From Protonemura montana (taxonomy: Eukaryota > Arthropoda > Insecta > Plecoptera > Nemouridae), in assembly GCA_947568835.1 (NCBI GenBank), contig OX387607.1:7573201-7637200 (forward strand): 64,000 nt of DNA, read 5' to 3'. The translations under genes were made by a program, and so were the position numbers. Shown here in pieces: positions 3 to 61,957 of this stretch; position 1 is the stretch's first letter; each line of letters begins with the position of its first letter. The notes under the pieces were generated by a model, which was not told where the DNA came from, ran no database searches, and was given only the letters and a program-made list of their open reading frames with translations.

Positions 3-137
3 TATATTCTGTCCGATTCAGCGACCAAAAGTCACTGGAGGTTCAAGTTTGATGAGGAGGATGAACCGTTGCCGGTGAAGGGAAATAACAAATTTAAAAA
101 TTTTAGGACTACTCGAAGGGTAATCAAATCTTTATAG
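3..137 (+). CDS. possible 3' exon of a gene running in from the left edge
   Basis: An open frame enters from the window edge and stops at TAG 135-137, giving 44 codons. It contains a charged stretch (WRFKFDEEDEPLPVKG). The first 25 codons look coding in composition and the rest is Lys/Asn/Arg-rich. A possible donor (G|GTGAAG) lies near position 77, so the true exon may end there instead of at the stop. An AATAAA-type signal occurs near 388. I do not recognise the protein. Chance is a real alternative because the frame is short. Confidence 0.28.
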   Translation, partial: YILSDSATKSHWRFKFDEEDEPLPVKGNNKFKNFRTTRRVIKSL

Positions 138-3574: not shown

Positions 3575-4190
3575 TTTGAGCGTGCATTTCAAGTCGGTGC
3601 CGATGTGCTTGATGTAACCAAGGCATTGTGTTTCGACGAAGACGTTTACAGGCACGTTGTCCTCGACAACCATACCGACCAGAGTACGAAACTCAATCTG
3701 GCAGCTGATATAATCTACAACTGCTCCCAGTCACCAATAGAAGAAATGGCTCTTTCAAAAGTTATGTCAGTGTACTTAAACGTATTGTATACAGACCAAG
3801 ATATTATGGCAATAGATTTTTTTTTTTTCAAAATATAGCGTTGATCCTTCTGTGTCTGTTCAAATTTATTTTTGACTTTCATCTCAACCGAAAAAGTTAT
3901 CACCCATAATTACAGGTATGTCGACATTGACGTTTGGCTACAATCGCGAGAAAGTCCCACAAAACTCCAGGGCTTTTACTTTACAGGTTCAGCTGAAGAA
4001 ATTCAAAGTTAGAATCTCATTTCTGAAATTGCCACAATCTCTAAATTTTATCTAACTTTTGCCTGTGTCGTAGTAAACCCTGAAACAGTTTCCTATTACC
4101 ACGTTGTAGCAGTCGTCTACCCAGTAAACGTGTCGCCGTATCCGAAAATAAGGTCAGCGGCAATCTTATACATCAACGTATGTTTTATGT
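3575..4190 (+). pseudogene. decayed fragment of a multi-GAIN receptor paralogue
   Basis: Three short plus-strand stretches match the fourth ectodomain repeat of the receptor at 52619-57118, in the same order. AADIIYNCSQ...KVMSVYLNVL (about 3700-3795) matches AALIHNAS...KKVLQTYLRVL. GFYFTGSAEEI (about 3970-4005) matches GIYFTHNTDQI. HVVAVVYPVNVSPYP (about 4100-4145) matches HRMVFAVYPTNMSPFP. The stretches lie in different frames with stops between them, and neither the GPS nor the seven-helix part follows. The alternative, exons of a live intron-containing paralogue, is weakened by the stops and missing splice sites. Confidence 0.6.
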
Positions 4191-4480: not shown

Positions 4481-25020
<20,540 letters not shown>

Positions 25021-31100: not shown

Positions 31101-31348
31101 TGTGTACAAAGGTGTGTACATTCGTAAGAAGAATAGGACAACAAACAACAAAACAAACCCACAACAATATCGACACCCCTAGACTGCTATCAAAAATCTG
31201 CTTCCCCACACCACCAAAGCAAACTCGACATTACCATCCTTTCAGGCCGCCAAAGAGAAGGATTGATAGCCACAAGCACGGGTGCATCAAAAGACTAATG
31301 ACTACCTACAATAGAATTATACAACTACCTGCCCTGACATAGACATCA
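31101..31348 (+). mobile_element. LINE ORF2 C-terminal fragment (outer-block copy)
   Basis: Duplicate of 18215-18462. Confidence 0.65.
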
Positions 31349-31369
31349 TGTGATGACAATGACAGCCCT

Positions 31370-33128: not shown

Positions 33129-34427
33129 TACCACCATAAGTTGTGTTACTAATTATTAACTGGTTGCCGTTTGAAACTTTTGTCTACTTTATCTAACTTT
33201 AGCACTAGCATTCAAAAACATATTTCCGACTAGGTTTTATGATTTCTAAAATTTAATTTGACACAATTTGTCAAAATTTGTCACCTACTCAAGATTTTAT
33301 TAAGAAAACTTCGCTGATTTTTACTCGGGATTCTAAACTTTAGAATGGAAATATGTTTTGCAATTTTAAACACGAATTGCTAAGAAACTTCGGAATACTT
33401 TCGTGGGCTTGTAAATTAAAAACATGCCCATTTTGTGACATGTTAAATATTTGGCTTTATTGATCATAATTACAGCAATAAACATGAACTTTACAAATTT
33501 TTGAAATGTATTTATTAGCATACGATGGATTTTTGAGTCAAATAGCTCTGGTATTAGCGATTCTCGGAACATTTTTATCGCAAACCGGATTGCAGAGTAC
33601 TGCTGGGTAGTGTACATCACGTTTTAGTTCAGACACTCTGGGAATTACTTTCCGTGTTATGAATTTCAAATGATACGAGTATGACAGTGAGTAAAATGCA
33701 TCACTTTCGAAAAGTGGATCATTTCGCTGTGCACCGCACATTAATTTGCGGTATCCAAAACTTCCCGCTGCATTTTAGCAGGTACAAAAATTTCAGTTAC
33801 ATAATTTGTATGTGTAAACCACAAGCGGAATTTCGAAACAAATACCCGTCGAAACCAATCATCTCCCTTAATTATATCAAACATCTATGATTGAAATTCA
33901 TCTGAACCGTCACGTAACAATACGATATTCGTGACTTCAAGATGTTATTTGATAAGAGAGGGTCTGGTTTTTCGTTGTTTAAATCAGTGTAACTTTCCTG
34001 CCAACTTCCAATTGAGCCAAAATCTAATCCTGAAAGAATTTTCCGAATTGAACCTCTCATTGCAATAGCATATACTCGTTTGCTAGATCAAGTCTAAAGC
34101 CTCAGGGTGCCAGGCGAATTACCAATAACCTGCACTTATTTCGCTGATGGGCGTGTACAATTGTCATTATCTGGTAATAACCATTATGTCCGCTGACTGG
34201 AACTGTAATCATCAATTGTTCACAAAACAGTGATTTGCCCACAGACACGATCAGACGAATTTCTGCGCTTTTTGGGGGCTACGCTACACTACACATACAA
34301 AAACTGAATTATTTCGTAGGAAACGCGTTAAAAAGCGATGTCGGCTCACTTTCAGTAACTATTGGTGTGCTTTGAAATTACTTTTAGAAACCATGTGGCG
34401 CTCGATTTCTTTATTAATTGGCATGTT

Positions 34428-34934
34428 CACCGAACGGTTTTGTGTTGGAAACACCGGTTCTTGTGAGATCACCGAAGTTAAGTAACACTGTGCCATAGGT
34501 CAGTTACTGGGTAGGTGACCATCGAACGGTTTGGTGGGTTGAAAACATCGGTTCTTGTGGGATCCCCGAAGTTAAGTAACACTGCGCCATGAGCCAGGTA
34601 TTGGGTGGGTGACCATGATGCATATGACCAGTTTTATTCAGGATAGAGGCTAAAGAGATAACAGTTAGTACAACTTTATTTTAGTTACCAATTTTTCTAC
34701 AGCATGGGTTTATGGAGAAATCCTGTTGTATGCGTTGTATCGTCCTTTGAAAGGGACGCTAAGCCGCTGGCGCTATTGGTGCTCTTTAAAAGGAGTGGGC
34801 TGTGTGGTGGTACCTGGTTACTTCTCCACCCTTTCAAGTTTAGGTTAGGTTTATCGTCATCCTCATTATGACACGCTGATTCACCGACGCCATTAGACCA
34901 GCGCTACAGGACCAGTTGTCAAAAGCAATCAATC
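34428..34934 (+). mobile_element. 5S-rRNA-derived SINE with dimeric head (outer-block copy)
   Basis: Duplicate of 21541-22047. Confidence 0.88.
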
Positions 34935-35695
34935 GTATACAGAAAATGTTCATTTGTAAGAATAAGCGAACCTGAAAATCTTCCTGTGGAAGTCCCAATT
35001 ATCTTATTTGTAACAGACGCCGCCGGAAAGATCTTACCCAGCTCCTTGGCGCGCGTAACCAAAGCGTCGAAGTCGGCGAGGGTGCCGAAGATCGGGTCGA
35101 TGTCACGGAAATCTGAGATGTCGTAGCCGAAGTCGATCATCGGCGATTTGAAAATGGGTGACAGCCATACTGCGTCTATCCCGAGGTCACGGAAGTGCTC
35201 AAGACGCGACGTTATACCTGTAATAGGCGCCACAACACGCAGTGCATTTCACAGATATATTACCATTATTTTTGTTGGATATTTTGCTGCACTTTCATTT
35301 CAACCGCACATTTTCACAACACCTTAACACATGTGATACATTCTCCCAAGACGCTTATGATTAGTTAATGGTTAATTTCCTGCACTTCACTTGTAAAGAA
35401 AAATTCCCTCCAGCACGAAAACATAATTTACCGACAGAGGCACCACCAGTCGTTTTGGGGTGCCATGCGGGCCTACTGTCAGTTTTAAAAACACTGCATA
35501 TCATCACCGTTGATGCCCGCCATTTTCCTGTTGCTCTAAGGCTTTTTTAGTGCCAAGATCTTTTGTTTTCGAGCTATAATAAGATATTCCCAAACAGTTG
35601 TAACAATCCCAAGATTTTTTTTGCAGATTTAAGTATTTTTAAATCCCGCTACTAAAATCATAGCTGAAATTTCATTCACGGATTGGTTTCCATGC

Positions 35696-35715
35696 GGGGG
35701 GGGGGGGGGGGGGGG
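35696..35715 (+). repeat. poly-G run, 20
   Basis: Outer-block counterpart of 22809-22825. Confidence 0.95.
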
Positions 35716-37460
35716 AGTCCTTTGGCTGGTACCTTATCTCACGGGCCATACCATAAATGACAAGCTGGTACAACCCCCCTCCCCCAACCCCAAGGCTTGA
35801 ACTAGGTTTTTTTTTTATAACGGCTCATGCACGTCGAAAGTATACAAAATTTATTACCTAAGAAAGCCTGTTTCGTTTCCAAGTAGAAAATTATTCAAAT
35901 TGTATAATTAAGTGTTAGAATCTTGAATAAACAGACATCTCATCGACAGCCAAATGCTACTATAGTGGGCCTCAAGAGCACTCAGTTTGTCTATTTTACA
36001 TATAATTTTGGTTTGTTTGTACCTCTGGTCTGAACCATAAGAATTATTATAGTTTTTGGTTAGCGTGTACCTCTTTCGGCACTGCCTGTTGCCACTAAAT
36101 ATTAGAATTCAGGAAGAAAGTCTACAACAGCCAGTGAGCAAACGAGCGCAATGACTGTTATTTTTTTCAACGCACATCAATTTTGCTGTTTATCCCGAAT
36201 ATAATTAGCAGATATTTTTGGAGAAATTTTAAACCGTACAAGATACATTTTGCATTTCAAAAGCCAAACGCATTCGCTCATCAATCAATAGGTGTGAGTT
36301 CACGATTGACGTTTCCAAAAGCTCATGTTACGCACTGGAAACTGAGCCAGGAAGATAAGGATGACAGTGCTCGTGATTGATTGCCCTTCTTGAGTTATGA
36401 GCTGTCAGTCAAATAAGGAGATTGGGGCTCTCAGTTCAAATGGACGAAGCTTATGTGTCCTAGAACATTACGTGTTACTAGCTAATTGAAAACAAATCTT
36501 TAGGAAAATACTGATTGAAATACGAGTCGCTAAATGTGCTTGGTAACAAAATATTTCAGAAGCTAAGACGATATTTTGAAGCTTATTGATTTAAAGAAAA
36601 GTAAACCCTAGGTGCAAGCGATAAGAAATGTGTTGTATTAACCTTGAACTTAATACTTGTAGCTAAGGGCCTGTCAGATAAATAACAAAATATCTCACTT
36701 ATCATTGAGTAATCATAATAACTTAAAAAATTATATGAGGTTGTTTCTTTCAAATTTGGTTCAAAAACGCTCAATGAACTTTAACATTTTTGATTCCGCT
36801 GACGATATCGTGGACGACAGGGCTAAAATGATTAAACCCATGAGCGAAGACAGCCGAAAACACAAACAAGAAAGTAAAATCGTCTACCGACCGCCCAAAG
36901 TTGCACCTTTATCGTTCACTAAACGGGTTCCATTGGAGAATATCATTACATACCTGCTAACCTAACTAATAATGGTAATTAGATCGTTGCAATTAATGAT
37001 ATACCAGCGTTATCTGGCTTTAATTTTACGGCTTCTATCTCCAGGACAGAAATACGTTTTGATGATATATTATTTGCGCTAAAAAGTCAGTCGAATAATA
37101 CCATGTGTAACGCATTGGAAGTCCACATAACTACGATATAAAGTTAATTAAACGATTTAGATTACAACACCTTGGTACTCCCTTAATGCTGATGCAATTT
37201 TTGGTTTTAAAGTATCCAAACTGGCTGCCTTGCGTGCTACGCACTATGTCCAGCTGATTTTTTAAAAAATCCTATCAACTCCTAATCACGAATGTCGTAC
37301 AACGTAACATAGTAAAATCAGTACAGGTTTGCAGTTATTGTAAAAAAAATAGCAGTTCGTTAACCAAATCATGTCAATGTTCGATCATCAAATCACAAAT
37401 CAAAAGAAAATAACTATAAGCAGTCAGCCCATGACGTGACCATTCATTTTTTGAGGTCTA

Positions 37461-37910
<450 letters not shown>

Positions 37911-38214
37911 TCAAAGATACATTAAATTAGTTAAAGCATGTTTATCCATAAAAATCTGCTAAATAGATATTCTTTATCTGGGAAATTTCAATTCAAACTG
38001 ATTTTCAATCAAGCATCAGAACACCATAATTTCCATTGGCCTAGTGATGTTGCTCTTTTCTAGGCTTTTATTAATAATATTAAATTTTATCTTTTATTTA
38101 TTCTTTCCATTATTCTTTATAATTCTTCAATAATCAAGGTAACTGATAATCAGATAATTCAATTCTCATCGATATTTGTAAATTTGACCGATTATAAGGA
38201 ACACTACAGCGCTA

Positions 38215-38520: not shown

Positions 38521-38958
38521 GTCACCGAACGGTTTGGTGTGTTGGAAACACCGGTTCTCGTAAGATCACCGAAGTTAAGCAACAATGCGCTGAGTCAGGT
38601 ATTGGATGAGTGGCCATCATACACATGACCAGTTCTGTTCGGGAGAGAGGTTGGAGAGATGGAATTTAGAACAGCAACTTCACTCGCCTTGCTTAGCAAC
38701 CTTTCGACAGCATGGATTTGTGGAGGAATCCTGCTGTTTGAGTTGTACTGTCCTTCGGAAGGGACGTTAAGCCGGTAGCCCGCTTGGTGCTCTTCGACAG
38801 GAGTAGGCTACGTGCCGGCACTAGGTTTCCCCTCCTCCCTTCTAGGCTAGGTTAAGTTCATCATCACCCTCATCAACATCCACTCATTCACCGCCGCTAT
38901 TAGACCAGCGCCGCATGGCCAGATGTCAAAACAGTGCGTCGTTAAACACCACACAAAA
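38521..38958 (+). mobile_element. 5S-rRNA-derived SINE, best full-length copy
   Basis: About 438 bp. The head CACCGAACGGTTTGGTGTG leads into ACACCGGTTCTCGTAAGATC, AAGTTAAGCAACAATGCG and GGTATTGGATGAGTGG, which follow the internal promoter of arthropod 5S rRNA. The body has ATGGATTTGTGGAGGAATCC and GGACGTTAAGCCGGT. It ends GTCGTTAAACACCACAC plus an A-run, and a short second end follows. Confidence 0.93.
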
Positions 38959-39265
38959 AAATGTGCGTCGTCAAACAGCTCAACTAAGATATAAAACCGA
39001 ACTATCTGGCTTGGATTTGAATAAAATTATTATTTTATCGATTTGCTGATAACCTAGTGGCTTGAAGTAAATGTATTACCTTCTCGGTAGAAGTGAAAGG
39101 TTATGGGATTTGGTTATTGAAACGAAGAAAATTAGAATATTACTAGAAAAATTACTAGAGAAGAGAAATAGAGAAATGGAGAATCACTCAAAAGTTGTCG
39201 CTATTGAATATGAGCTTGTTATCCACTGTATTTATTTTGGTAACGATTACAAGTAGATTTGTCGA

Positions 39266-40024
39266 AGGCTAAATTTTAATCTGGTGACAGCAAACTTAAC
39301 GAAGGCTCGAACTTGGCTTATTTTTGTAACCAGTGAGATATGATAGCGTGGTATCATAGTGAATCATAGCTTTTAAAATTGCGACTAACGATAAATCGTG
39401 TAATTATTTGACTGCTCAAAATGAAAATACTACAAACTGATTTATTACACTGAAATTAGTTTTATTACCATATTATTACTCTATTATAAATAACCCTACC
39501 TCCTTAAGCACTCTTTGAGCTTATCGTCATCCCCTCTATCGCAAGTTGCTTTGCCGTATAATCGAACCAAAAGCAAATTTACGATAAATTGAAAAATGTT
39601 CGCATATTTTTCGACAATAAAGAGAAGCAAATTGAAATATTTGTGAATCACAAATATCTGGAACACAGTTTTAGCTTGCATGTAATAAAATGTCAATGTT
39701 TTTATGTTACATTTTATGAAAATCAGTTACAATTATACCACATCCCAAGCGTTCATTAAAGTATTCGCTTTTTCCGAAGCCTCTCCTTCAATTTCCCTCC
39801 AGCTTGCAAATAAATACATTTATCCACAACGCAACCGCGTCCACATAATTCTAACCTAATTCTAACTAAGTTTCCTCACGCCCATAATTTCGGTGGTGGG
39901 CATATCCTCCACCAAAATCCAACACGATTTCAGCACTGTTCAGTTTGTCGACCACCGACCGTACACTTTCCATCTCCCTTTTCACTTTCACGAATTGTTC
40001 TAACACTGCAATTATGGTGACCTG
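39266..40024 (+). repeat. 0.76-kb dispersed repeat, copy 1
   Basis: Nearly identical to 50057-50815: both start AAGGCTAAATTTTAATCTGG and end ATTATGGTGACCTGAC. No inverted termini or target duplication are visible. The minus strand has a short frame (EQFVKVKREMESVRSVVDKL) open in both copies, perhaps the end of a transposon protein. Confidence 0.85.
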
Positions 40025-40475
40025 ACCCGATCGTAGGGGTGTTTGGGTGGGGGGCCAAAAATCTCAAACCTCTGGCCCGGGTCTCTTTAAGAATTAGACA
40101 GTCTCTCGTCTTCTTGGGGTTTGAAACAACGTGCTAATCGTTTTGGCAACAAGCAGACGTTTTGGGTAAGTCTTAAATATAAGGGCAGCTATTTTAATGC
40201 CCAAACATTATTTGCTCTTAAGCCAGTATTTGAAGCTTTGGGATACATTTCTGAGTGGTCATTAATTGTTACTATTTATAACTTTAAAATACTCTGTATT
40301 TTGTACTTGAAAAACACACAGATACCAACATTAAATTATTTATATAAGATATTGTTTGAAATTTGTTTTGAATTACGTCTGTCAGCGACTGTCAGCGTCT
40401 GTCAGCTTGTAAAAGATATTTGATATCTGAAATCGTATCTTGTAATAAATATTAATATATTGTGATCTTCTCAAA

Positions 40476-42605: not shown

Positions 42606-45600
42606 GTGAGCTAATATTTTATAAAGTCGTGCGCCTATCGGTGCAGAGTGCATTTATTTATTGCTTCTAATGTGTCCCTTGATCAACTATAAAAAAAAAA
42701 GGTTACCCTTAAACTCGGTAATACCAAAATCTTCAACTCGGAGTTGAGCTGAAGTCAAAATAAACCCTGATTTTTATTGCATATGATTCGAAGGCAAATG
42801 GCAATGTTTTGAAGTTCCACAGAGTTGAGATTTTGGTAAAACAGGCCTCAATAATAGCACTATAGCATACACTTTGTTTCATGCTAGCTTGCTGCCATTG
42901 AATGAAATAAGAAGCTTGGCATAGCATGTTGTGGTGTAATGCTATATTTTTTCTCTTTACCAAAACAGTATTTGTCCTTGAGAGTTTTAAGCATAAAGCG
43001 TTGTTTTTTGTGCGCAGGATCGCGGATATGTTCATTAAGTACGGGCCTGTGGTTCGAATCTGGCTGGGCACCAAGCTGGTCGTGGGCATCACGAGTCCAG
43101 CCGATGCACAGATAATTCTCTCGCATCCGAAGGTAACAATGCAACGGCGACCAACGAGCAAGAGCTTGACATTTAAAGAGATGCCATTTCAGAGATGAAA
43201 CTGCGACAAACTGGTAGCAGCGTGTTTTTGGTGTCATCTATCCCCCCCCCCCCCCCCCCCTCAACCATAACAACAAACATTCACTATTGCTTAAAAGCAC
43301 CGAGGTTAAGCGCCACTCCGCTGCGCCAGGCTATGAGTGGTGACCCATAATCATAATGCATAATCATTCTAGGCTAGATTAGGTTTATCATCATCTTCAT
43401 AATCTATTTATTCACCGTTGCTTCTGAGAATCGAAAATTATTGGGCAACTTGGGAATTATTTTGCATTTACTATATGTTTTTTTGAAAACTAAGCCAGAA
43501 TCATAACTGATATTTCATTCATGAGTTGGTAGCAAAGCAAGAATACAGTCGTTAAGCTAATATCGTCTCTTACGGGCTGGAATGTTATTGGATTCACACA
43601 AAAATGCTAATTTTTTTTATCTAACAACATACCTTTTTCAGGTAATCAACCGCGACCCCAACTTTGATATAGTACTGAACGACCTGGTCAACAACGGCCT
43701 GCTGACGTCACAGGGATCATTGCATCGGTACCAACGGAAGCTTGTTGCTCCGGCGTTCCACGCCAAGATCCTCTCCTCTTTCTTACCGATTTTTGGACAG
43801 AAGGCCGAGCTTCTTGCGAAGCGATTGCAAGCCTTGCCAGACGGCACCGATGTCGACATGAAGGTGCAGTTAAGCGCGTGCACTCTCGACGCCATACTTT
43901 CGACGGCAATAGGTTGGTTCATTCGTGGTGTTTTACGACGAACTGTTTTAATAACTGACCCTGTGCCATGAACCATAATTAACCTAAGCTACCCTAGGAG
44001 GGAGGAAGATAAACACAATGCCAGGTTTTCGCCTACTCCTGTCGAAGAGCACCAAAGAGCACCTTAACGTCTTTTCCTAAGGATGGTACAACATCAAGGT
44101 CGATAAGCAGGGCGAATGAAGTTGTTGTTCTAACTTTCATCCCTCCAACCTCTCTCTCGAACAGAACTATGATGGTCACTCATCCAATACTTGACCCAGC
44201 GCAGTGTAGCTTAACCTCGGTTTTTTAATAGTAACAACATGCGGCCAATAGCGACACTATTTGGTTTAGATGAAATCTTATCAAAATTGCAAACGCTTGC
44301 AAAAATATATATACTATATATATAAACTATTTGGTTTAGTTTCGCAATGCGAGTTGTGACTTCTAATTGGTAAGTTTCAGTAAAGTTTGAATGAAAAATA
44401 GGGTTTGTTCTTATGGAGAACAAATCATCCCAATTATCGTGATCAATCGTTTTTCGGTGAATGTTTTCAGTTTACACCAGACAATTGAAGTTATTATCCG
44501 TGTAAACTGGGTATAGGCTTGATTATAATATAACATACAACTTTTCTAAATCTTTATTTAGAATGCTCGTTACGTTTACTAAAATTATTAAAACTAGTTT
44601 TTGAGTTATTATATGTCGATTTTTTTTTTTTGCTTCTTTTCTCGTGTCAGCGTACAATGGTAAGACAGTCACATAAAAAAAATGTTTAATTTAGCAGCCG
44701 TCACTCTTTTCTCTCTGCCCTAATTGCCGTTTAATATTTTAACCTCGAAATGATGGGGGTTTAATTTTTAAACTGTCATTTGGAGGTCAAAATAAGTAGT
44801 CCCATTGATATTTTATTTGTATTTTTAAGTCATCAAATATTCCGTTTTGCAGTTAAACACATAGGTAGTTAAAAACTTTTATTTTCTTGGTCTTTGTGTG
44901 TTGCATCGATTTTTTGGTTTGCAACCATTAAAATATCATTGTTTTAAAGTAAATTACTGCGCCGGTTAAAATCGCCCCTAAACGTCGTTTTAAACGGCTT
45001 TGGTGCAATCGGCCCTTAGAAACTCTGTTTAAATCTCCTTAACTACCAAACGTTGAATTTACTATTGCAACTCATATGCTTGATGGCAGGGCTCGCATAA
45101 GTAGACAACAAAAGAGGCTTTCTTAAACCTCACATACGGGATAACCTTTTGGGGTGCAGCGCCGAAAGCGTCACGAATCTTCAAGCAACAGAAGAGGATA
45201 GTAAGGGCCCTAGCTGGTGCGTCCTACAAAGCGACATGCAGACCAATCTTTAAAAAAAGAAGATTACTAACCTACTATGGTATATTTATCTACTGCAGTA
45301 TTCTGCACACAGTGACTAACAACACGCTGCCCTCAACACCAGCCACTGAACAAATGATCACCAGGAACAAGACATACTACACGCAGCCCAAACATAGCAC
45401 GCGAGCATACGAGAAAAGTCCGTTATATCAGGGGCACGCATTGTTCAATAACCTTCCGAAATCAATCAAAGATCGTCGAGGAACAAGCAGCCTAAAGAGC
45501 GAACTAAAGAAATTTCTCTGCGATCTCTGCCCATATTCATTAAACGAATTCTACGCCATCAAAGAAGCATAATATCGATTTTATTTAAACATATATATAT

Positions 45601-47240
45601 ATATATATATTGTATTATATCTACACTAATTTACTGTTGTTATTATAACGTACTATGTATAATCTGTACATGGATGTTCCCTGAATAAACTTATTATTAT
45701 TATTATTATTATTATTAAACAAATTGCAGGATATGTGAAAATCTCCCTCAAAAGATCAAATGGCTACTCTTGATCTATCGTGTTGAATTTTAGCCTAGCG
45801 TTGACGGTGCATCCACTGCTACTGGCTCCTTCGCTTCTTGATTTCTAGGGGTGATGGACGTTAAACTTGGCTATCAAGGACTGATCGACTTGAAGTCGTT
45901 GTTCGACGACTCCTTGACGCTGCTCTACCAACGTATGGTGACGCCGTACCTCCTACTCGAGTGGTTCTACCGGTGGACACCCATGGCGCGAGAGTCATAC
46001 GAACTTAGGAAGGTAGGAAACAGGCACAAAATGTGATACTAAAGAAGGGACTTAGGGTGGTACCAGATGAAGGTCCGAACACACTCTTGTTGATTTGGTT
46101 GAAGATAACTGCACTTGAATGTTATTAAGACTCGTTTGTAATAAATCAAGCCTCTCTGTTTTCTTTTCTACGCTCTTGGCTCTAACGATTAATTTACATT
46201 AACTAAAGAATTACCAAACAAAACAGCTAGTTTTAACTTTTGCACTAGCTTCCCAAAAAAAATGTATTATAACGTTCTGCATTTAATTTGCATTATTTAT
46301 TTACAAAGGTAAGTCGTGTATTTTTTGTTTGTTTTACAAATTATTCACACATATGAAATTTACTTACACATCACTTATAAGGTACACACGATCTAAATAA
46401 TACCAATTGGACTTAAATTATTAATACACTTTCTCAAAAAACTTCCAGCAACGCGAGGACTTCTTCCACACTCTCTGGACCACCAAAACCGAATCGGTCA
46501 ACAAAAGCGGTGGCAGGACGAACGCAGTCTACACCTCCGGCGACAAAAAGTTACAAAGCTTCCTCGACATGATCTTTGAACTGTCAGAAAAAGGCGAAAC
46601 GCCCTTCACCTACACCGAGATTCGCGACGAAGTGCTCACCCTAGCCGCCGCAGGCATGGACACCTCGGCCAACATCATGTCCTACGCGCTAATCATGCTC
46701 GGCATGCATCCCGAGTACCAAGATCAAGCGGTCGACGAACAAAAAGCCATCTTCCAAGACTCTTTAGAACCAGCCAACCTCCAAAACTTACCAGACATGC
46801 CGTTCCTTGAACTTATAATCAAAGAAACTCTTCGGCTATTCCCGCCTATAAGCCTGATGCCACGCGAGATACCCGTTGACATCACCATATCGAACGGTTA
46901 CGTTCTTCCTGCGGGAAGTTCGGCGTTTATCTTTAATCACGGTATGCAAAGAGATGCTGACAACTTTTTGGACCCAGAACGATTCTGGCCAGAACGCTGG
47001 CTACCGGAGAACAGCGTTGGCAGACATCCGTTCGCCTATTTACCGTTCAGCGCTGGTCCACGGAACTGTATTGGACAGAAATATGCTCTGATGCAGATGA
47101 AGGCGACGTTGAGTCGGCTTTTAAGGCAGTTCCGGTTTGAGAGCAGTTATACGATGAAAGAGTTAAACAGGATCAAGTTGAATATCACAAACGTCTCGGC
47201 GGTTGGTTACAACGTTCAGACGTTCATCAGGAAGTTCTAA
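42430..47240 (+). CDS. cytochrome P450, CYP4-like, five exons
   Basis: This is a membrane-bound haem monooxygenase of 505 residues; CYP4-type enzymes commonly hydroxylate fatty acids, hormones or foreign compounds. Exons (plus): 42430-42605, 43018-43132, 43642-43912, 45849-46012, 46449-47240, totalling 1518 nt with all phases matching. Residues 2-25 form the microsomal anchor helix, then the hinge LPGPPARLLVGN. The I-helix is AGMDTSA (310-316), the ExxR motif is E368-T-L-R371, PERW follows, and the haem loop FSAGPRNCIG holds the axial cysteine C449. The short AGxDT form with Ser instead of Thr after the conserved Thr is unremarkable. The start is chosen because it begins the anchor directly; the second Met is six codons on. 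Intron 3 carries a SINE and a LINE tail. Subfamily and substrate cannot be told from sequence alone. Confidence 0.94.
43018..43132 (+). CDS. P450 exon 2
   Basis: Acceptor GCGCAG, donor AAG|GTAACA. Encodes IADMFIKYGPVVRIWLG through AQIILSHPK. Confidence 0.93.
43242..43260 (+). repeat. poly-C run, 19
   Basis: Mononucleotide run in P450 intron 2, about 110 bp beyond exon 2. Confidence 0.95.
43289..43420 (+). mobile_element. 5S-rRNA-derived SINE remnant
   Basis: A short head piece (AAGCACCGAGGTTAAGCGCC, GAGTGGTGACC) is joined directly to the TCTAGGCTAGATTAGGTT end of the body, so the middle is deleted. P450 intron 2. Confidence 0.65.
43642..43912 (+). CDS. P450 exon 3, helix C region
   Basis: Acceptor TTTTCAG, donor G|GTTGGT. 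Encodes VINRDPNFDIVLNDL, RYQRKLVAPAFHAKIL (helix C pattern) and CTLDAILSTAI. Confidence 0.93.
43917..44221 (-). mobile_element. 5S-rRNA-derived SINE
   Basis: Begins five bases inside P450 intron 3 with the antisense 3' end (GTGGTGTTTTACGACGAACTG) and runs to the antisense box A (GCTTAACCTCGG). Its edge almost touches the exon 3 donor. Confidence 0.82.
45080..45720 (+). mobile_element. LINE 3' end with (TTA)n tail in P450 intron 3
   Basis: Frameshifted reverse-transcriptase C-terminus: YGITFWG and QKRIVRALAGASYKATC, then HSTRAYEKSPLYQGHALFNN and LPKSIKDRRGTSSLKSELKK. A (TA)n stretch and a (TTA)n run (about 45691-45716) end it, and the tail repeat marks the priming end. It is in the same direction as the gene. 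Confidence 0.85.
45849..46012 (+). CDS. P450 exon 4
   Basis: Acceptor TTTCTAG, donor AAG|GTAGGA. Encodes VMDVKLGYQGLIDLKSLF through ARESYELRK. Confidence 0.92.
46449..47240 (+). CDS. P450 exon 5: I-helix, ExxR and haem-binding loop
   Basis: Acceptor CTTCCAG; 263 codons then TAA. Carries all catalytic-core motifs in one exon. Confidence 0.95.
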   Translation, partial: QREDFFHTLWTTKTESVNKSGGRTNAVYTSGDKKLQSFLDMIFELSEKGETPFTYTEIRDEVLTLAAAGMDTSANIMSYALIMLGMHPEYQDQAVDEQKAIFQDSLEPANLQNLPDMPFLELIIKETLRLFPPISLMPREIPVDITISNGYVLPAGSSAFIFNHGMQRDADNFLDPERFWPERWLPENSVGRHPFAYLPFSAGPRNCIGQKYALMQMKATLSRLLRQFRFESSYTMKELNRIKLNITNVSAVGYNVQTFIRKF

Positions 47241-48790: not shown

Positions 48791-50056
48791 GAGAGTGAGA
48801 AAATACGTTTGTTTACGTCAGTTTATGTTATACAAGAGAGATTACAGAAGGTGAATAGGATCAGTGCGTTGGACTGTGGAACTTTGTGGTTCATATTTGA
48901 TGCCAAGTGAATTTTATTTAATTTTTGGGCGCCAGTAGCCGGATTCACAAAGAACCCATAACCCCCAAAAAATTAAGAGTGGTAACCGTGGTAACCGTGG
49001 TAACAGTGGTGTCTCTTGCAAAAAAGTATTTTATTTTGCTAAACAGTAAAACCACCCTTTAATAAAATGGTAAATCGCCATGTCGCTACCGAAGATTGAT
49101 TTGCTTGAGTCGGTTTGTATTGTTGTAATGAAGTGCTCTTGGAGTGGCACTTCACTGAAAGGGCGGTGACGTTCCTACAATAAAGTAGTTTCCCAAGGCC
49201 ACAGAGTGATTAGATGGATGATCAGGTAGCGTCCTCGAAAGTGGTAAACTCTCTAGGCTGTGTGGCTCTGATCGAAAAAGTGGACTAGCTATAAGCTAAA
49301 TTTTCTTTTATTTATTTCAGTTTTTTTTTGTGGCCCAGATAGGTCCACAAGTACAAAGTTTAGTCTTAAGATTCTCGCGTGGAACAAAAATAACACAGAA
49401 CAAAGTTTTTAACAGATTGTTGTTGTAAGTTAAGGTACAAATTATTAGTGGAGCAGAGAATTGAAACTAGAAATTGTGATGAACTGGTCGAATTGAATCA
49501 AGATCTAATTCGACGCTTAGTATTAAAGTCAATAACCGAGAAAAACTCTGCCACAGTGCTTGTCGTCTGCTAACGCACCATGTTAGCTCTCTTAAGGCAG
49601 TCCGGGATGGACCGAAAAGAACTTAAGTAATGAATATGAATAACAAATAAAAAAGTATGGGTCGCTCTGTACGCTGCACGGCTCTTACTTAATTAAAAGT
49701 GTGGACAATTGTATGATTTCTAATTAATAGCAAAGTTGTGAAAACAAGTGCAGCGCGTGAAACTTTAGATCTATTTATGGCATGACTAAGTCTTAAGGGC
49801 TAGACTGCTATAACAAGTTACAAACATTCTTTGGAGAGCACATTTTTACTACACAAGATAATGGCCTTTAAGGAGTTTAGATAAATATATATTAATGAGG
49901 GGTGCATTATTAAATTGTTATGTAGACGGCCACCCAAGCAATTGACATCAAGAAAGCTGATTCCAATATTTGCTATAATTATAACATTTTATATATTTTC
50001 CGTAGTATAATTTTTTTTTCCACAAGTTTCAAATAATCACCATGTAGATTACACCA

Positions 50057-50815
50057 AGGCTAAATTTTAATCTGGTGACGTCGAACAAAACCAAGGCTCG
50101 AACTTGGCTTATTTTTGTAAGCATGTGAGATATGATAGCGTGGTATCATAGTAAACCGGGCTTTTAAAATTGCGACTAACGATAAATCGTGTAATTATTT
50201 GACTGCTCAAAATGAAAATACTGCAAACTGATTTATTACACTGAAATTAGTTCTATTACCATATTATTACTCTATTATAAATAACCCTACCTCCTTAAGC
50301 ACTCTTTGAGCTTATCGTCATCCCCTCTATCGCAAGTTGCTTTGCCGTATAATCGAACCAAAAGCAAATTTACGATAAATTGAAAAATGTTCGCATATTT
50401 TTCGACAATAAAGAGAAGCAAATTGAAATATTTGTGAATCACAAATATCTGGAACACAGTTTTAGCTTGCATGTAATAAAATGTCAATGTTTTTATGTTA
50501 CATTTTATGAAAATCAGTTACAATTATACCACATCCCAAGCGTTCATTGAATTATTCGCTTTTTCCGAAGCCTCTCCTTCAATTTCCCTCCAGCTTGCAA
50601 ATAAATACATTTACCCACAACGCAACCGCGTCCACATAATTCTAACCTAATTCTAACTAAGTTTCCTCACGCCCATAATTTTGGTGGTGGGCATATCCTC
50701 CACCAAAATCCAACACGATTTCAGCACTGTTCAGTTTGTCGACCACCGACCGTACACTTTCCATCTCCCTTTTCACTTTCACGAATTGTTCTAACACTGC
50801 AATTATGGTGACCTG
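50057..50815 (+). repeat. 0.76-kb dispersed repeat, copy 2
   Basis: Partner of 39266-40024 with scattered substitutions. Here it abuts the PIF-like sequence 50816-51054. The minus-strand frame reading EQFVKVKREMESVRSVVDKL to GREET-stop is intact. Confidence 0.85.
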
Positions 50816-51054
50816 ACAACTTGCCCCTGACCTGTAACAACCTGCCCCGACAAGGGGCAAGTTGTTACACTTTACAACTAGACAAATTTTACGTTATCAC
50901 GTGTCTATTAAAAAAATTATCAATGTTATAAAAAGTATTTTATTAGTCAAAATATGTGCAAATATATTGCCAAATTTAAAATCCATGAAAATTTTGTTAA
51001 ATGTCCACAAAAAAATCAAACGTCGAAATTGTAACAACTAGCCCCAGTCTCCCC
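50816..51054 (-). mobile_element. PIF/Harbinger-like terminus
   Basis: Its reverse complement matches the first about 200 bp of the element at 59441-60559, starting GGGGAGACTGGGGCTAGTTG. The inner side carries extra AACTTGCCCC-type words in both directions. The other terminus is not found. Confidence 0.7.
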
Positions 51055-52618: not shown

Positions 52619-55600
52619 ATGTCTCTACCACGCATCCTGTGCCTTGTCACATTGTTTAGTGTCAGTTTTTGTACAATTACAACTCTATCCAGCGCCCTCG
52701 AGGAAGCAACAACGCCAGCTACAACAATTGAAAGTATACTCGAGGAGTACAACGCCACAATAGAGGCGGAATCCGAAGCATACGTGGTCAATTACAACGA
52801 GGTTATAGAAAACGGTACCATAGCTTTGGCAGCCGAGTTGGTGCGTGACCTTGGGACGCAAGAGACGAACAAAGATACACTACAAACACTAGTCGCAATT
52901 TACGCAGCCGCCCTAAGTTTAGATGAGACTACCTTGATTTATGACTCCGACGTAAATTACCAGATCCTGCAAGATACGGCAGACATCTTAGTCAATTTGT
53001 CTCTCAGAAATATGGAACCATTGGCGCTCGAATGGGAGCCTGGTTCGGTACACTTTAAGATCATCAACCAAGTTGGACTCGATCCCGAATTTTATAAAAA
53101 CTTCAATGGTGATATAATTCATGCAAACGGTGGATTAGAGATTCGTAGTATGTGTTTAGTATCTCAGTTTAATCACGTGGGTCTGGTTATTTACCCTTCT
53201 AATAGGAATCTGTTTAGGCCTTTACCAAACGTAGACTACCCAATTACAAACTTTACAGTGTTCGACGTGATCGTGGTGAACTATAATATTGATACCACTG
53301 AAGTGTACAATAGTTCTTGCGCTCAATTTTTCGATATGGTCAATCTGCATTGGGTGTCCGAACTTCAACCTATGGGACTTCGCTTTGGGTGTGCCCAATG
53401 GAACTACGCTATCGATGACTGGTCTGGAAAACGCTGTTCAATTGAACCGGATGACTTCAACACCGGGTTTAGGTGCTACTGTGACATTAAAAACAACGGC
53501 AAGACGACACAGATAATTATCTATGAATATATTGAAGACACTTCGGCAAATTTCTTGTACTTGCCATCAAAAGGTAGCAACAAAAACTGCACTGATTTGC
53601 AGAAACTGAAAGAAAACCTAGATATGATAAGCGCTCTTGCTTTGATGCCGGAAAATTTAATTTCATTTGAAAGCCTTATTTATGATTACCTGTCGACGGT
53701 GTTCTGTTTTCACAATGACTCTGCGTTAATTCAAAGTGCACGTAACAGTAGCGTGATCAATGACATCGGCATCATCCTCTCTAGGGTGATTCCCGAAGAC
53801 GAGGGCATCTTGTTTGGCACAGGCAATGGCGTCATCAGTGGATTTATAATTTCGACGAGAACATACAGGTACGATCCACCAATAGCTTTCATATTTTACG
53901 CAAACCACTCAAATTGGATGACCTACTACAGATCCAGAGAGACCATCAACGGACACAAGATTTTCAGTGCCGAGGTGGAATACGCGGTGATCTTCTCGAA
54001 GTCTGTGGTGCGCCAAAACGCTCGATACGGCATCGTCCTGTACCCGCCTGGTAAGTTCTTCGAGGCGGCGACCTTGATCGATGGCCACAAAGTGCTGGCA
54101 AGTCGCGTTCTGGACGTCGTGTTGACGCCGTTCGCGAACACGGAGGGTGACCGCGACCAGCTCGTGCACATGTTCTTCAATGCATCTGTTGCCATCGGTT
54201 CTTTGTCCGGCTGCGCGTTCTGGGACGAGTCGTTTGAAGGTTGGGCAACAAAAGGCTGCGCCGTGAACCCAGCATTTCATCGGGACGACTTATGTACTTG
54301 TAATATGAGCGCAAGTTTAAACCAGTCTCGCACACGAGGCCATTTTCTCAGTTACAAGTTTCTTAACGTCGACTTTGATAACAACGACGGTGGATCTGAT
54401 TATCTTCTTCTTGCTGACCAAGATATGTTCGCCGTGTCCGTTTTGGGAATCAACCAGTTGCAACACTATCTTCATGGGGGTGACGTGGTCAACAAAGAGA
54501 TACGTCTTCTTGTCAATATTTTATTCGATGCGTACGCAACAATTCCGTTAAATGAGGGCTTGGACGATCAAATAATCCAGGACGCTCGCGCTATTTTCCT
54601 GCACCACAATTGTTCGAAACAGCAAATGGGCGCGTTTGGCGATTCAGTGGGAACAGTGTGTGTCAATACGAGTAATCCAGAGCAAAATTGGCACTTTGTC
54701 GCTTTCTCATACAATAAGATCTTGGCCTTTTATTCAACGAACTCGTACACGCGGGCTGACTTCATTCAGACAGTTGTGTTTTCACGCGACGTCAGTTATG
54801 CAGTCCATATATCTGACACCGTTTTCACACAAAACGCGCGTTACTCGTTTCTGATTTATCCTGTGGACGTCTACCTAAAACCTCTGCCTCACCTCAGATA
54901 CGAAATCCTGAGCAGCCGTGTGGTTGACGTAATTTTGGTACCAGGAAACTCTACAGAAATAGCAGACCAGTTCATCGAGATCTACCTCGACCAAACAATC
55001 TACAACAGCACACAAGGCTGCGCCTGTTGGAACGAAGAAATCAACGATTGGACGTCCAAGGGTTGTTATGTCTTCAAGGTGAATAACTTGGACGTCTGCA
55101 ACTGTAGTCTTTCAGCCAACTTCCTCCAGTCAAGATCTGGAGGTCAGTATATCGTGTACACATACTCCGCCACCTACTTCGACAACGACGTTTGGTTAAA
55201 ACTTGGATCGGAATCTCTTTCCGATGGTAGTGTCATCTTCAGTCAAGGCGCGGCACTAATTCACAACGCCTCCAAGCTGCACGTCAACGATGCAAGAATC
55301 AAAAAGGTGCTGCAGACATACCTGCGAGTCTTGTCACTCGACGAGAGTACACTGGCCGATAAACAGCATGAGATAGCGATGATTTTACGTGATATAGGGA
55401 CAATGATGAGTCGTTACCGGCTCAAACTGACGACGTCTGCGGTACGGAGTTATGGGATCCAAGGTTCGTGGAGTGTCAAAACCACGGACGTCGCCAAGGA
55501 CTTGTTTTCCAATGCCGTCCTGTCGTCGAACGTCACGAACGATATTTCGATGACTTCAGATATGTCACTCGTGGCCATGGGATTCTTAGAATTAGGTAAA

Positions 55601-57118
55601 ACACTTACTCGTCCGACTGGTATCTACTTTACCCACAACACCGACCAAATTTCTGCATCTGAAATTTTTCAAATTGCGTATACCCTCGACACATCAGAAA
55701 TTCTAGCCGCGAGTCCACTTTTCGCTTGTCTCTTAGTGCGTGACGATACAATCAACGCCCATCGCATGGTGTTCGCCGTCTACCCAACGAATATGTCACC
55801 GTTTCCACGCACCATGACATCGTTCACAATATTCAACACGCGTCAAGTCGATATCTTCATGGATACTGCAACCGGCGACAGCAAAGGGCAGACTTTCAAC
55901 CTTCCTCCGTCAAAGGCACCCCTGGATGTTTTCTTTCAGCCGTCAGAGCACCCGAAGAGCTACATTGAAGTGGGGTGCGCCTCGTGGGACGACCAGGGGT
56001 TCGAATGGACCAACAACGTATGCTCGCTTAACCAGACAAACGCGACCATCGCTAACGTAACTTCCACTCACGTGTTTTGCCGCTGCGATCTGACCAATCG
56101 TAGTGAGACTCGTATCATAATGTACGAATACACGATGATGGCAAACTTTTCTTTTGTTGATGAACTCGATGCACAGCTCATAGTCTTCCTAATCGTTTCT
56201 GTTCTTTCTTTTTTCGGCTTTGTTTTCATTTTTGCCACGGCGCTCACGTTCCCCAAATGGCGCGAAGAGCTCGGCAACAAGATCCTAATTCACCTCACCG
56301 TCTCCTCGGTGCTCTATCTCACTCTGGCGACATATCGCGAGACACACGTAATCTACTCGGACGGTTCGAACAGCATCCCGTTGATTGCGTTCACCGTGTG
56401 CGTGCACTATACTCGTCTGACGCATTTTTGCTGGGGGTTGGTCATGTCCGTACTACAATACAAGCGGTTCTCTAGCATAGTTGGAGCGTCATCGATACCT
56501 CACCTGCTGCTAAAGGTTAGTTTGATAGCGTGGGGTACTCCGGTTGTCCCCCTTTTTATTCTGCTTCTTTGGAATGTGGAAACGCACTTTTGCAGTCCGG
56601 ACAAGCTCACGCATCTCGTCTTGTACCTGATACCTGGCGTTGTGATAATGGCGATGAACTTTGGTTTAATGATTGCGATTGTTTACGCGATAACGAATAA
56701 GTGCGGGCGAGCAAATGATCCTGACCTACAAAGGCACAACATAGAGAACGCGGACGTGCTAAAACGCCAGCTCAAGACGATCACTCTAATGTTTTTTCTT
56801 TTTGGATTTCCAACTGCGTTTGAGATGTTTAACGACATTGGGTCACACAACATTACGGTAGAATTTATCAGCAAGATTTTGGATCCGGTCCAGGGGTTTG
56901 TTTTGTGGTTGTTTTTCATAGTGTTTGACGACAAGACGCGCGGCAAGTGGCTGGAAAAGTTTGGCTACGAAGAGACACCTGTGCGCGCAGGATCCAACAA
57001 TGCTAGCAATGGACCTCGTCGTGTCAACATAGTGGCTCGTAGAACCACGACCGTCTCTCGGCAAGCGACCGTTCCTCGGAGAACGACCATCCGGCGCGCG
57101 CCCCGCACAGCCGTCTAG
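52619..57118 (+). CDS. intronless multi-GAIN adhesion-type GPCR, 1499 aa
   Basis: One uninterrupted frame encodes a cell-surface receptor. I take the Met at 52619 (CACC-ATG, followed by the signal peptide MSLPRILCLVTLFSVSFC) over the in-frame Met at 52529, which would bury the signal. The ectodomain (about 25-1180) is rich in N-glycosylation sites and holds four repeats. Each is a helical stretch followed by a beta-rich part ending in a GPS-like C..W.....W...C....C.C pattern, starting near residues 256, 532, 801 and 1120. The usual His-Leu|Ser/Thr cleavage triad is absent: the last GPS reads CRCDLTN. The seven-helix domain is at about 1186-1438, with THFCWGLVMSV in helix 3 and DPVQGFVLWLFFIVFDD in helix 7, as in family B2. 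The basic Arg/Thr tail ends RTAV. Ligand and G protein are unknown. A decayed relative lies at 3575-4190. Confidence 0.9.
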   Translation: MSLPRILCLVTLFSVSFCTITTLSSALEEATTPATTIESILEEYNATIEAESEAYVVNYNEVIENGTIALAAELVRDLGTQETNKDTLQTLVAIYAAALSLDETTLIYDSDVNYQILQDTADILVNLSLRNMEPLALEWEPGSVHFKIINQVGLDPEFYKNFNGDIIHANGGLEIRSMCLVSQFNHVGLVIYPSNRNLFRPLPNVDYPITNFTVFDVIVVNYNIDTTEVYNSSCAQFFDMVNLHWVSELQPMGLRFGCAQWNYAIDDWSGKRCSIEPDDFNTGFRCYCDIKNNGKTTQIIIYEYIEDTSANFLYLPSKGSNKNCTDLQKLKENLDMISALALMPENLISFESLIYDYLSTVFCFHNDSALIQSARNSSVINDIGIILSRVIPEDEGILFGTGNGVISGFIISTRTYRYDPPIAFIFYANHSNWMTYYRSRETINGHKIFSAEVEYAVIFSKSVVRQNARYGIVLYPPGKFFEAATLIDGHKVLASRVLDVVLTPFANTEGDRDQLVHMFFNASVAIGSLSGCAFWDESFEGWATKGCAVNPAFHRDDLCTCNMSASLNQSRTRGHFLSYKFLNVDFDNNDGGSDYLLLADQDMFAVSVLGINQLQHYLHGGDVVNKEIRLLVNILFDAYATIPLNEGLDDQIIQDARAIFLHHNCSKQQMGAFGDSVGTVCVNTSNPEQNWHFVAFSYNKILAFYSTNSYTRADFIQTVVFSRDVSYAVHISDTVFTQNARYSFLIYPVDVYLKPLPHLRYEILSSRVVDVILVPGNSTEIADQFIEIYLDQTIYNSTQGCACWNEEINDWTSKGCYVFKVNNLDVCNCSLSANFLQSRSGGQYIVYTYSATYFDNDVWLKLGSESLSDGSVIFSQGAALIHNASKLHVNDARIKKVLQTYLRVLSLDESTLADKQHEIAMILRDIGTMMSRYRLKLTTSAVRSYGIQGSWSVKTTDVAKDLFSNAVLSSNVTNDISMTSDMSLVAMGFLELGKTLTRPTGIYFTHNTDQISASEIFQIAYTLDTSEILAASPLFACLLVRDDTINAHRMVFAVYPTNMSPFPRTMTSFTIFNTRQVDIFMDTATGDSKGQTFNLPPSKAPLDVFFQPSEHPKSYIEVGCASWDDQGFEWTNNVCSLNQTNATIANVTSTHVFCRCDLTNRSETRIIMYEYTMMANFSFVDELDAQLIVFLIVSVLSFFGFVFIFATALTFPKWREELGNKILIHLTVSSVLYLTLATYRETHVIYSDGSNSIPLIAFTVCVHYTRLTHFCWGLVMSVLQYKRFSSIVGASSIPHLLLKVSLIAWGTPVVPLFILLLWNVETHFCSPDKLTHLVLYLIPGVVIMAMNFGLMIAIVYAITNKCGRANDPDLQRHNIENADVLKRQLKTITLMFFLFGFPTAFEMFNDIGSHNITVEFISKILDPVQGFVLWLFFIVFDDKTRGKWLEKFGYEETPVRAGSNNASNGPRRVNIVARRTTTVSRQATVPRRTTIRRAPRTAV

Positions 57119-60880: not shown

Positions 60881-61957
60881 TTAGCCAGATTTGGATACTT
60901 TATTTTTGATAGTTGCTGATGGTTTTGCTGGAAGCTTAGGTGCTGGACCCTTAGAAGCAGTTTTCAGCTTCGACCTATCTATAATCGTTGCCTTCGAACC
61001 TGTATTAGTTGCCTCCGTCTTTGGAGCAGTGGTATAAAAATTCATAAACATGGTGTTTACAGATGCTGAACTTGCCTTGCTACCATCACCCAAATAGCAA
61101 ACTACCTGCCCCATCATCTTCATAAAAGTATCCATGTTTTGGTTTGGCGACATCTTCATGCCCTGTTTAAGAAGTGCCTTCAAGATTTCTATATTAGTTT
61201 TGCTCGTGTTTGTAGCGGCACAAATCGTAATCAGGCCTCGACTGCTGAAGTCGGCAAATTGCACCTGGTTAATTTGCCCGGTGGGAGACTTGGCCGCGGC
61301 GTCGCCGGCGTCAGTGATGACCAAAATGAACTTGTTCAGGTTCGCGTTATTGGTCTTAGGCCCGTAGCGAATCATACTGGCAAGAATCACGGGCATCACG
61401 TTCGCTACGTCTTGACATGTGGGATCCGCACGCTTGACCCGCGAGTTCGGGACACATTCGGTGAAGACAACCATTGTGGCCAGTGCCACTGAAATTAAAG
61501 AGATGATATTTGTCAGTAACAGCCTAGAGAAAGAACTCGGGAGGTGTGCATTATTTTTAGTGAACAGATTTTGTGGTGGTAACAAGAAATTTTGATCGGT
61601 TTTTTAGAACATAACAGATTTTGGGGAAGATGGGCGATAACTTTTGGTTTCAAACGATTAACACTGCTTTGAAAATACAGACACACTGAATTTTTCTTAA
61701 AAAAAATAAGCAACGATTCACTGTCTAACGCAGACATTGACCGTCTGTTGTTTCTTTCTCTCACTGGCAGCATTTTCACAGAAAAAAATTATGCGCCCAG
61801 AGAAGTTAACGCAAAACCAAAACTGGTAAGTTATTGGTGCTGTCCTGTTGACCTTAACAATAATGCTTTGGTCAGTAATGTGACTTTCAATTTACGTTTT
61901 GCTTTGCTAAATATAACATTAAAGCTCACCAAATCCCGAGAGAAGTACACCTTTCAT
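60881..61957 (-). CDS. small secreted protein of unknown family, two exons, 211 aa
   Basis: Exon 1 (61930-61957) encodes only MKGVLLSGF plus one base, at donor G|GTGAGC. Exon 2 (60881-61488) starts after TTTAATTTCAG in the matching phase. Together they give a signal peptide (MKGVLLSGFVALATMVVFTEC), which neither exon has alone; this agreement supports the model. After a dibasic site (RVKR, about 30) comes ADPTCQDVANVMPVILAS, a core FILVITDAGDAAAKSPTGQ, then LITICAATNTSKTNIEILKA and GQVVCYLGDGSKASSASVN, and a Lys/Pro/Ser/Thr-rich basic tail to the stop. The alternating hydrophobic strand and Asp-rich turn recall a von Willebrand A-like fold, but the metal-site motif is absent, so I do not assign it. 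No related gene lies in the window. Confidence 0.72.

What the first reader, a model, noticed from the sequence alone, without database searches (positions are those of the whole stretch)
52619..57118. Receptor with four tandem GAIN/GPS-like repeats in front of a seven-helix domain
Known adhesion GPCRs usually have one GAIN domain with one GPS next to the first helix. Here a C..W....W...C....C.C pattern occurs four times, near residues 256, 532, 801 and 1120. Each is preceded by a helical stretch (for example LQTLVAIYAAALSLDETTL and KKVLQTYLRVLSLDESTL), so the whole GAIN-like unit seems repeated. Stacked GAIN units could act as a force-bearing or ligand-binding rod. I know of no described receptor of this layout, but I cannot search.
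Basis: partly seen in the sequence, partly recalled or inferred. Interest (0 to 1): 0.9.

Follow-up and report, generated by a model that had tools for sequence, protein, structure and literature searches.

The report
Adhesion receptor with four stacked GAIN units
This animal-type gene encodes an adhesion-type cell-surface receptor whose outer part repeats, four times over, a domain that known receptors of this class usually carry once, and the residue needed for self-cutting is missing each time, so it may work as an uncut, stretchable sensor.

Summary
Window 52619-57118 (+) is one unbroken 1499-codon frame: hydrophobic leader, four repeat units (residues 27-316, 317-590, 591-862, 863-1176), seven-helix domain, basic tail. 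Each unit ends in a GPS-type motif with four cysteines and two tryptophans. All six unit pairs beat 300 shuffles. Pfam GPS passes its cut-off, just (23.1 against 22.5 bits). A profile of the units finds only adhesion-GPCR GAIN domains in the PDB, weakly (3 of 3 hits, best E 0.28). A low-confidence model of internal unit 3 has helices then 13 strands; its two best PDB matches are BAI3 GAIN. The seven-helix part matches adhesion GPCRs in 11 of 12 PDB hits. Limits: unit 1 lacks about 38 profile positions; the helical half is detectably alike only between units 1 and 4; the unit 4 model was poor and its 50 listed matches held no GAIN. No unit has the H-x-S/T triad. Best reading: a non-cleaving adhesion GPCR with GAIN units in series, probably force-transmitting. 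My ten literature searches showed no tandem-GAIN receptor. New variant of a known kind.

The parts
52619..57118 (+). Intact single-exon reading frame, 1499 residues plus stop
52619..52699 (+). N-terminal hydrophobic leader, probable signal peptide (residues 1-27)
   Evidence: hydropathy peak 2.0; no signal-peptide program was available
52697..53566 (+). Unit 1 (residues 27-316), GAIN-like but lacking about 38 profile positions in the first half
53390..53482 (+). GPS-type motif of unit 1 (residues 258-288)
   Evidence: no Pfam GPS match for this unit alone
53567..54388 (+). Unit 2 (residues 317-590)
   Evidence: (GPS E 0.0048)
54212..54301 (+). GPS-type motif of unit 2 (residues 532-561)
54389..55204 (+). 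Unit 3 (residues 591-862), modelled: helices then 13 strands, best PDB match BAI3 GAIN
   Evidence: (GPS E 0.024)
55019..55105 (+). GPS-type motif of unit 3 (residues 801-829)
55205..56146 (+). Unit 4 (residues 863-1176), next to the membrane; model too poor to judge
   Evidence: (GPS E 0.39)
55976..56086 (+). GPS-type motif of unit 4 (residues 1120-1156)
56108..56131 (+). Last strand of unit 4 (TRIIMYEY, residues 1164-1171), at the place of the tethered agonist; assignment is inference
   Evidence: strand in the poor model (unit residues 302-310); sequence
56147..56968 (+). Seven-helix domain of adhesion-GPCR type (residues 1177-1450)
56969..57115 (+). Basic cytoplasmic tail, ends -TAV (looks like a class I PDZ ligand; motif recalled, not tested)
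   Evidence: sequence
3596..4171 (+). Decayed or spliced fragment of a relative (resembles residues 842-1072), three in-frame stops
   Evidence: (E 1.3e-9)
3..134 (+). Possible C-terminal end of another relative, cut by the window edge
   Evidence: E 0.098 with the seven-helix query, 0.46 with the whole protein; 0 of 1000 shuffles

Best explanation
It is a divergent adhesion-type (class B2) G-protein-coupled receptor whose whole ectodomain consists of four GAIN-derived units in a row, directly followed by the seven-helix domain. Shown: the intact frame, the repeat, the GPS cysteines and tryptophans in all four units, the relation of the seven-helix part to adhesion GPCRs, and the absence of the H-x-S/T triad. 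Supported but weaker: that the units share the GAIN fold. Inferred: the receptor is not cut by itself; the chain of disulfide-stapled beta units spans from an external anchor to the membrane; pull or binding strains or partly unfolds unit 4, whose last strand (TRIIMYEY) lies where the tethered agonist of other members sits, and so turns on the seven-helix domain without shedding the ectodomain. The three outer units would act as extensible spacers and binding surfaces.
For: Intact frame. Six of six unit pairs alike. Four of four GPS-type motifs. Pfam GPS E 1.1e-4, 23.1 bits against a cut-off of 22.5, three stretches. Unit profile against PDB: 3 of 3 hits with E up to 10 are adhesion-GPCR GAIN domains (ADGRG1 twice, ADGRB2). 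hhalign of the unit profile with fragments of ADGRG1 (two), G3 and G6: E 1.1e-5, probability 81.9; single units 0.0018, 0.00032, 0.0024, 0.057 against 0.25 and 0.38 for two other window proteins. Model of unit 3: 13 strands after helices, pTM 0.51; Foldseek ranks 1 and 2 of 481 matches are BAI3 GAIN, ranks 5 and 7 ADGRG3 and ADGRG1. Seven-helix part: 11 of 12 PDB hits are adhesion GPCRs (D1, G2, F1, G1), best E 2.8e-4. No H-x-[ST] in the 16 residues after C.C in 4 of 4 units. Partial unfolding of the GAIN-B part under low force, also in non-cleavable BAI3, is stated in a review passage (PMC13197933).
Against: No PDB profile hit is significant by itself (best E 0.28). No Foldseek match reaches E 0.001; TM-scores 0.34 and 0.37 with 178 of 272 residues under pLDDT 50. 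The unit 4 model (pTM 0.31) gave no GAIN among 50 listed of 813 matches. Unit 1 has no Pfam GPS match and units 2-4 alone are below the cut-off. No Pfam 7tm_2 match at E up to 10. The N-terminal halves of units 2 and 3 resemble no other unit. BAI3 function needs neither tethered agonist nor GAIN domain according to an abstract (PMC13322242), so the tethered-agonist step is not a given. Expression was not tested.
Confidence: 0.65

Rival explanations
1. Four GPS/GAIN-derived units, but the outer ones have lost the GAIN role and serve only as adhesive or ligand-binding domains; signalling comes from the seven-helix part with ordinary ligand or constitutive activity, and force plays no part.
For: Divergence between units (U2-U4 score 61, the lowest), no cleavage triad, unit 1 incomplete. 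BAI3 works without its GAIN domain and tethered agonist according to its abstract.
Against: All four motifs keep the four cysteines and two tryptophans, so the fold, not only a surface, seems kept. Nothing here identifies a ligand.
Confidence: 0.25
2. The GPS-like end is repeated, but the rest of units 1-3 is not GAIN: beta-rich modules that share only the C-terminal GPS hairpin with GAIN.
For: The N-terminal halves are alike only in U1-U4. Pfam and hhalign matches concentrate on the last 20 to 70 residues. Structure scores are weak.
Against: The 109 residues before the GPS are alike in 5 of 6 pairs. The hhalign match of the profile covers 69 columns including the strands before the GPS. The unit 3 model aligned with BAI3 GAIN over 305 to 313 columns, gaps included.
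Confidence: 0.1
3. A recently dead or chance-joined gene: adjacent single-GAIN receptors fused by tandem duplication, not a working protein.
For: Decayed relative at 3596-4171 with three in-frame stops and a 12.9 kb tandem duplication at 12133-37913 show an unstable region. No expression data.
Against: The 1499-codon frame stayed open while its units diverged to 36% identity at most between units in BLAST. Third-position G+C is raised throughout.
Confidence: 0.05

Closest known systems
ADGRX receptors of Drosophila, Mayo/CG11318 and Ketchup/CG15556 (review passage, PMC13197933)
   Same: Ectodomain built of GAIN only, without other recognised domains, before a seven-helix domain.
   Different: Described as having GAIN and 7TM domains only, with a canonical GPS, and self-cut; here four GAIN-type units and no cleavage triad. 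Their sequences were not held, so relatedness was not tested.
ADGRB3/BAI3 and ADGRB2, the BAI receptors
   Same: BAI3 GAIN is the best fold match of unit 3; ADGRB2 is among the three PDB profile hits; BAI3 is called non-cleavable in passages.
   Different: One GAIN in the solved chains matched, together with a HormR domain; Pfam reported no other domain at E up to 10 here.
ADGRG and ADGRD receptors (ADGRG2, ADGRD1, ADGRG1)
   Same: Best sequence matches of the seven-helix domain.
   Different: Low similarity (best E 2.8e-4 to 4.7e-5); no Pfam 7tm_2 match here; single membrane-next GAIN in those (general knowledge and passages).
Polycystin-1 type proteins (GAIN in an 11-helix protein; title and abstract seen)
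   Same: A GPS/GAIN before a membrane domain outside the classic receptors.
   Different: No PLAT, REJ, PKD or other polycystin domain reported by Pfam at E up to 10; the membrane part matches adhesion GPCRs.

Membership tests
Adhesion GPCR (class B2) | Seven-helix domain related to class B2 | tested here: met
   11 of 12 PDB hits are adhesion GPCRs, best E 2.8e-4; whole protein best E 4.7e-5, 4 of 4 hits. Pfam 7tm_2 did not match. Hydropathy above 1.5 marked only 4 segments in this part, so the count of seven rests on the alignment.
Adhesion GPCR (class B2) | GPS-type motif directly before the first helix | tested here: met
   Motif at residues 1120-1156, first hydrophobic segment from 1177.
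Adhesion GPCR (class B2) | GAIN fold of the membrane-next unit | tested here: inconclusive
   Unit 4 model pTM 0.31, no GAIN among 50 listed matches; homologous to unit 3, whose model matches GAIN.
Adhesion GPCR (class B2) | H-x-S/T self-cleavage triad (common, not universal) | tested here: not met
   0 of 4 units in the 16 residues after C.C. Not decisive: non-cleaved members exist.
Adhesion GPCR (class B2) | Tethered agonist that activates the seven-helix domain | not testable with these tools
   Only the position of a hydrophobic last strand, TRIIMYEY, is seen; the TxFAVLM consensus (passage) is absent.
GAIN domain | Helical subdomain A, then a beta sandwich ending in the GPS, found in more than one unit | tested here: inconclusive
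   Unit 3: met in a low-confidence model, best match BAI3 GAIN. Unit 4: not shown. Units 1 and 2: not modelled; homology only. That GAIN-B has 13 strands is recalled.
GAIN domain | GPS cysteines and tryptophans | tested here: met
   4 of 4 units.
ADGRX (Mayo, Ketchup) | Phylogenetic grouping with these receptors | not tested
   No arthropod sequences held.
Polycystin-1 family | PLAT/REJ/PKD domains and 11 helices | tested here: not met
   Pfam returned only GPS for the whole protein at E up to 10.
Methuselah receptors | Methuselah ectodomain | tested here: not met
   No such Pfam match; PDB hits name only adhesion GPCRs and one HicB.

The most novel reading that the evidence does not exclude
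A lineage of receptors in which the GAIN domain has escaped its role as the single, self-cutting, membrane-next trigger and has become a serially repeated building block: a chain of non-cleaving GAIN units that works as a tunable molecular spring, with the innermost unit still holding a built-in agonist.
Probability: 0.3. Interest if true: 0.8.

Novelty: new variant of a known kind. Interest (0 to 1): 0.6.

Why it matters
Passages of a 2026 review describe GAIN as the one extracellular element found across nearly all adhesion GPCRs, lying just outside the membrane, and name the fly receptors Mayo and Ketchup as GAIN plus 7TM only. A receptor with four GAIN-derived units shows that the domain can be multiplied and used in series, away from the membrane and without self-cleavage. 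It offers a natural test of what GAIN does beyond cutting and presenting the tethered agonist, for example whether units in series change the force range of the receptor.

Tried and rejected
Own-genome search: no genome is held for this window. Relatives: none in phage records (tblastn), viral contigs (3 pattern matches, none confirmed) or prokaryote genomes (6 pattern matches, none confirmed), as expected of an animal gene; so orthologues could not be compared. NCBIfam: one weak chance match (acetolactate synthase, E 0.072). Viral structure library with the unit 3 model: 483 matches with E up to 10, none with E up to 0.001. Unit 4 model: too poor to use; I do not count it for or against. A first motif pattern of mine (C.W instead of C..W) found no copy in the protein and one in 20,000 shuffles, because the spacing was mistyped; corrected. 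BLASTP of the whole protein with itself listed only the full-length match; the units had to be compared apart. ARAGORN found no tRNA while Rfam found one. Dead-gene and polycystin readings were considered and put low for the reasons given in the rival list and membership test.

Papers: ten searches; several lists were capped (25 of 27, 20 of 28, 15 of 35, 15 of 16, 15 of 127 shown). Five papers opened: passages only for PMC13197933 (first 300,000 of 412,533 characters held), PMC12716839 and PMC13062082; a term search without hits for PMC11697300; abstract and outline for PMC13322242.
Full report
What is there. Window 52619-57118 on the + strand is an open frame of 1499 codons. The longest stop-free stretch in 20 shuffles of the window was 173 codons. 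The protein starts with a hydrophobic leader and has four repeat units, which I bounded at residues 27-316, 317-590, 591-862 and 863-1176. A seven-helix domain and a short basic tail follow.

The repeat. Each unit ends in a motif of four cysteines and two tryptophans, starting at residues 258, 532, 801 and 1120. It occurred in 0 of 50,000 shuffles of the ectodomain and nowhere else in the 1564 six-frame stretches of 25 or more codons, though I set its spacing after seeing the copies. Of the 6 unit pairs, 6 score above all 300 shuffles; U2-U3 is the closest (BLAST 36% over 142 columns) and U2-U4 the weakest (z 5.3). By part, the GPS end is alike in 6 of 6 pairs, the 109 residues before it in 5 of 6, and the N-terminal part in 1 of 6 (U1-U4). 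In a profile of the four units, unit 1 skips positions 112-149 of 294. So the beta half is repeated four times, perhaps incompletely in unit 1; the helical half is shown by sequence only for units 1 and 4.

GPS and GAIN. Pfam GPS matches the whole protein at E 1.1e-4, 23.1 bits against a cut-off of 22.5, with three stretches. Unit by unit it is weaker: unit 2 0.0048, unit 3 0.024, unit 4 0.39, unit 1 none. The profile of the four units against 177,635 distinct PDB sequences gave 3 hits with E up to 10, all adhesion-GPCR chains matched in the GAIN/GPS part: ADGRG1 (0.28 and 0.31) and ADGRB2 (1.4). None is significant alone; the point is that no other protein appears. hhalign of this profile with fragments of ADGRG1 (two), ADGRG3 and ADGRG6, copied from tool output, gave E 1.1e-5, probability 81.9, over 69 columns that include the strands before the GPS. 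Single units gave 0.0018, 0.00032, 0.0024 and 0.057; two unrelated window proteins gave 0.25 and 0.38. These E-values are for one comparison each.

Structure. AlphaFold2 on unit 3 with the other three units as alignment gave mean pLDDT 49.6 and pTM 0.51, with 178 of 272 residues under 50: three longer helices, one short helix and 13 strands. Foldseek against 350,542 PDB chains listed BAI3 GAIN first and second (E 1.4e-3 and 1.5e-3, probability 0.96 and 0.99, TM-score 0.34 and 0.37), ADGRG3 fifth (0.11) and ADGRG1 seventh (0.12). No match reached E 0.001. No template was given, but AlphaFold2 may recall such folds. The model of unit 4 failed (pLDDT 40.3, pTM 0.31), and none of its 50 listed matches, of 813, is a GAIN domain. 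Units 1 and 2 were not modelled, for lack of jobs.

Seven-helix domain. Residues 1172-1499 alone gave 12 PDB hits with E up to 10: 11 adhesion GPCRs (D1, G2, F1, G1; best E 2.8e-4) and one bacterial HicB (1.8). The whole protein gave 4 hits, all adhesion GPCRs, best E 4.7e-5 to ADGRG2. Pfam 7tm_2 was not reported at E up to 10, so the domain is divergent. A plain hydropathy threshold marks only four segments there; the count of seven rests on the alignment to ADGRG2 over about 250 residues.

Cleavage. Passages on GAIN chemistry give H-X-S/T as the canonical self-cleavage motif (PMC13062082). In the 16 residues after C.C of each unit it is absent in 4 of 4, and a histidine occurs only in unit 2, at position 14. 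The residues after C.C read DIK, NMS, SLS and DLT; set against a canonical N-H-L-T (recalled), the histidine seems to be the one missing. I infer that no unit cuts itself.

Mechanism. The most likely reading is a non-cleaving adhesion GPCR with GAIN units in series. A review passage reports partial unfolding of the GAIN-B part at low force, also in non-cleavable BAI3 (PMC13197933). Four such units in series would lengthen stepwise and soften the pull on unit 4, whose last strand TRIIMYEY sits where other members keep their tethered agonist. All of this is inference. An abstract on BAI3 reports that the receptor works in neurons without tethered agonist or GAIN domain (PMC13322242), so binding or scaffolding without force remains a rival.

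Surroundings. A relative of the receptor lies at 3596-4171, with three in-frame stops (tblastn E 1.3e-9), on the strand opposite to alpha-amylase-type exons. The first 134 bases may be the tail of another relative (E 0.098 and 0.46). The receptor thus belongs to a local family with at least one decayed member. The window also holds cytochrome P450 exons and alpha-amylase-type exons. I take the source to be an animal, perhaps an arthropod; this was not tested.

Known or new. Review passages call GAIN the only extracellular element found across nearly all adhesion GPCRs, just outside the membrane, and call the fly ADGRX receptors Mayo and Ketchup minimal receptors with only GAIN and 7TM domains, both self-cut. 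Passages of a 2025 study describe a GAIN/7TM module in most animal and choanoflagellate members (PMC12716839). Searches for tandem, multiple, duplicated or two GAIN domains or GPS motifs listed no paper that, by title and abstract start, describes such a receptor; lists were partly capped, subscription papers are missing and protein databases could not be searched, so an annotated homologue may well exist. I file it as a new variant of a known kind.

Noticed in passing
window 12133-25023 and 25019-37913 (+): Head-to-tail duplication of about 12.9 kb, 99.94% identical over 12,895 columns: very recent, or an assembly error. Each copy holds a 5S rRNA-like match and an alpha-amylase-type first exon.
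   Followed up: partly
window 3596-4171 (+): Decayed or spliced relative of the receptor between alpha-amylase-type exons of the other strand.
   Followed up: partly
window 3-134 (+): Possible C-terminal tail of a further receptor relative that begins outside the window.
   Followed up: partly
window 43561-47237 (+): Cytochrome P450 exons (Pfam E 6.6e-7 and 7.3e-60).
   Followed up: no
window 60884-61603 (-): 240-residue open frame with a hydrophobic N-terminal stretch and no Pfam match at E up to 0.01.
   Followed up: no
window 12976-13094 (-), 25862-25980 (-), 38524-38644 (+): Three 5S rRNA-like matches above Rfam's gathering score; they may be parts of repeated elements.
   Followed up: no
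window 39250-40026 and 50041-50817 (+): Repeat of 778 columns, 96.9% identical, one copy about 2 kb before the receptor gene.
   Followed up: no
window 57107-57115 (+): The protein ends in -TAV, which looks like a class I PDZ ligand (motif recalled, sequence).
   Followed up: no
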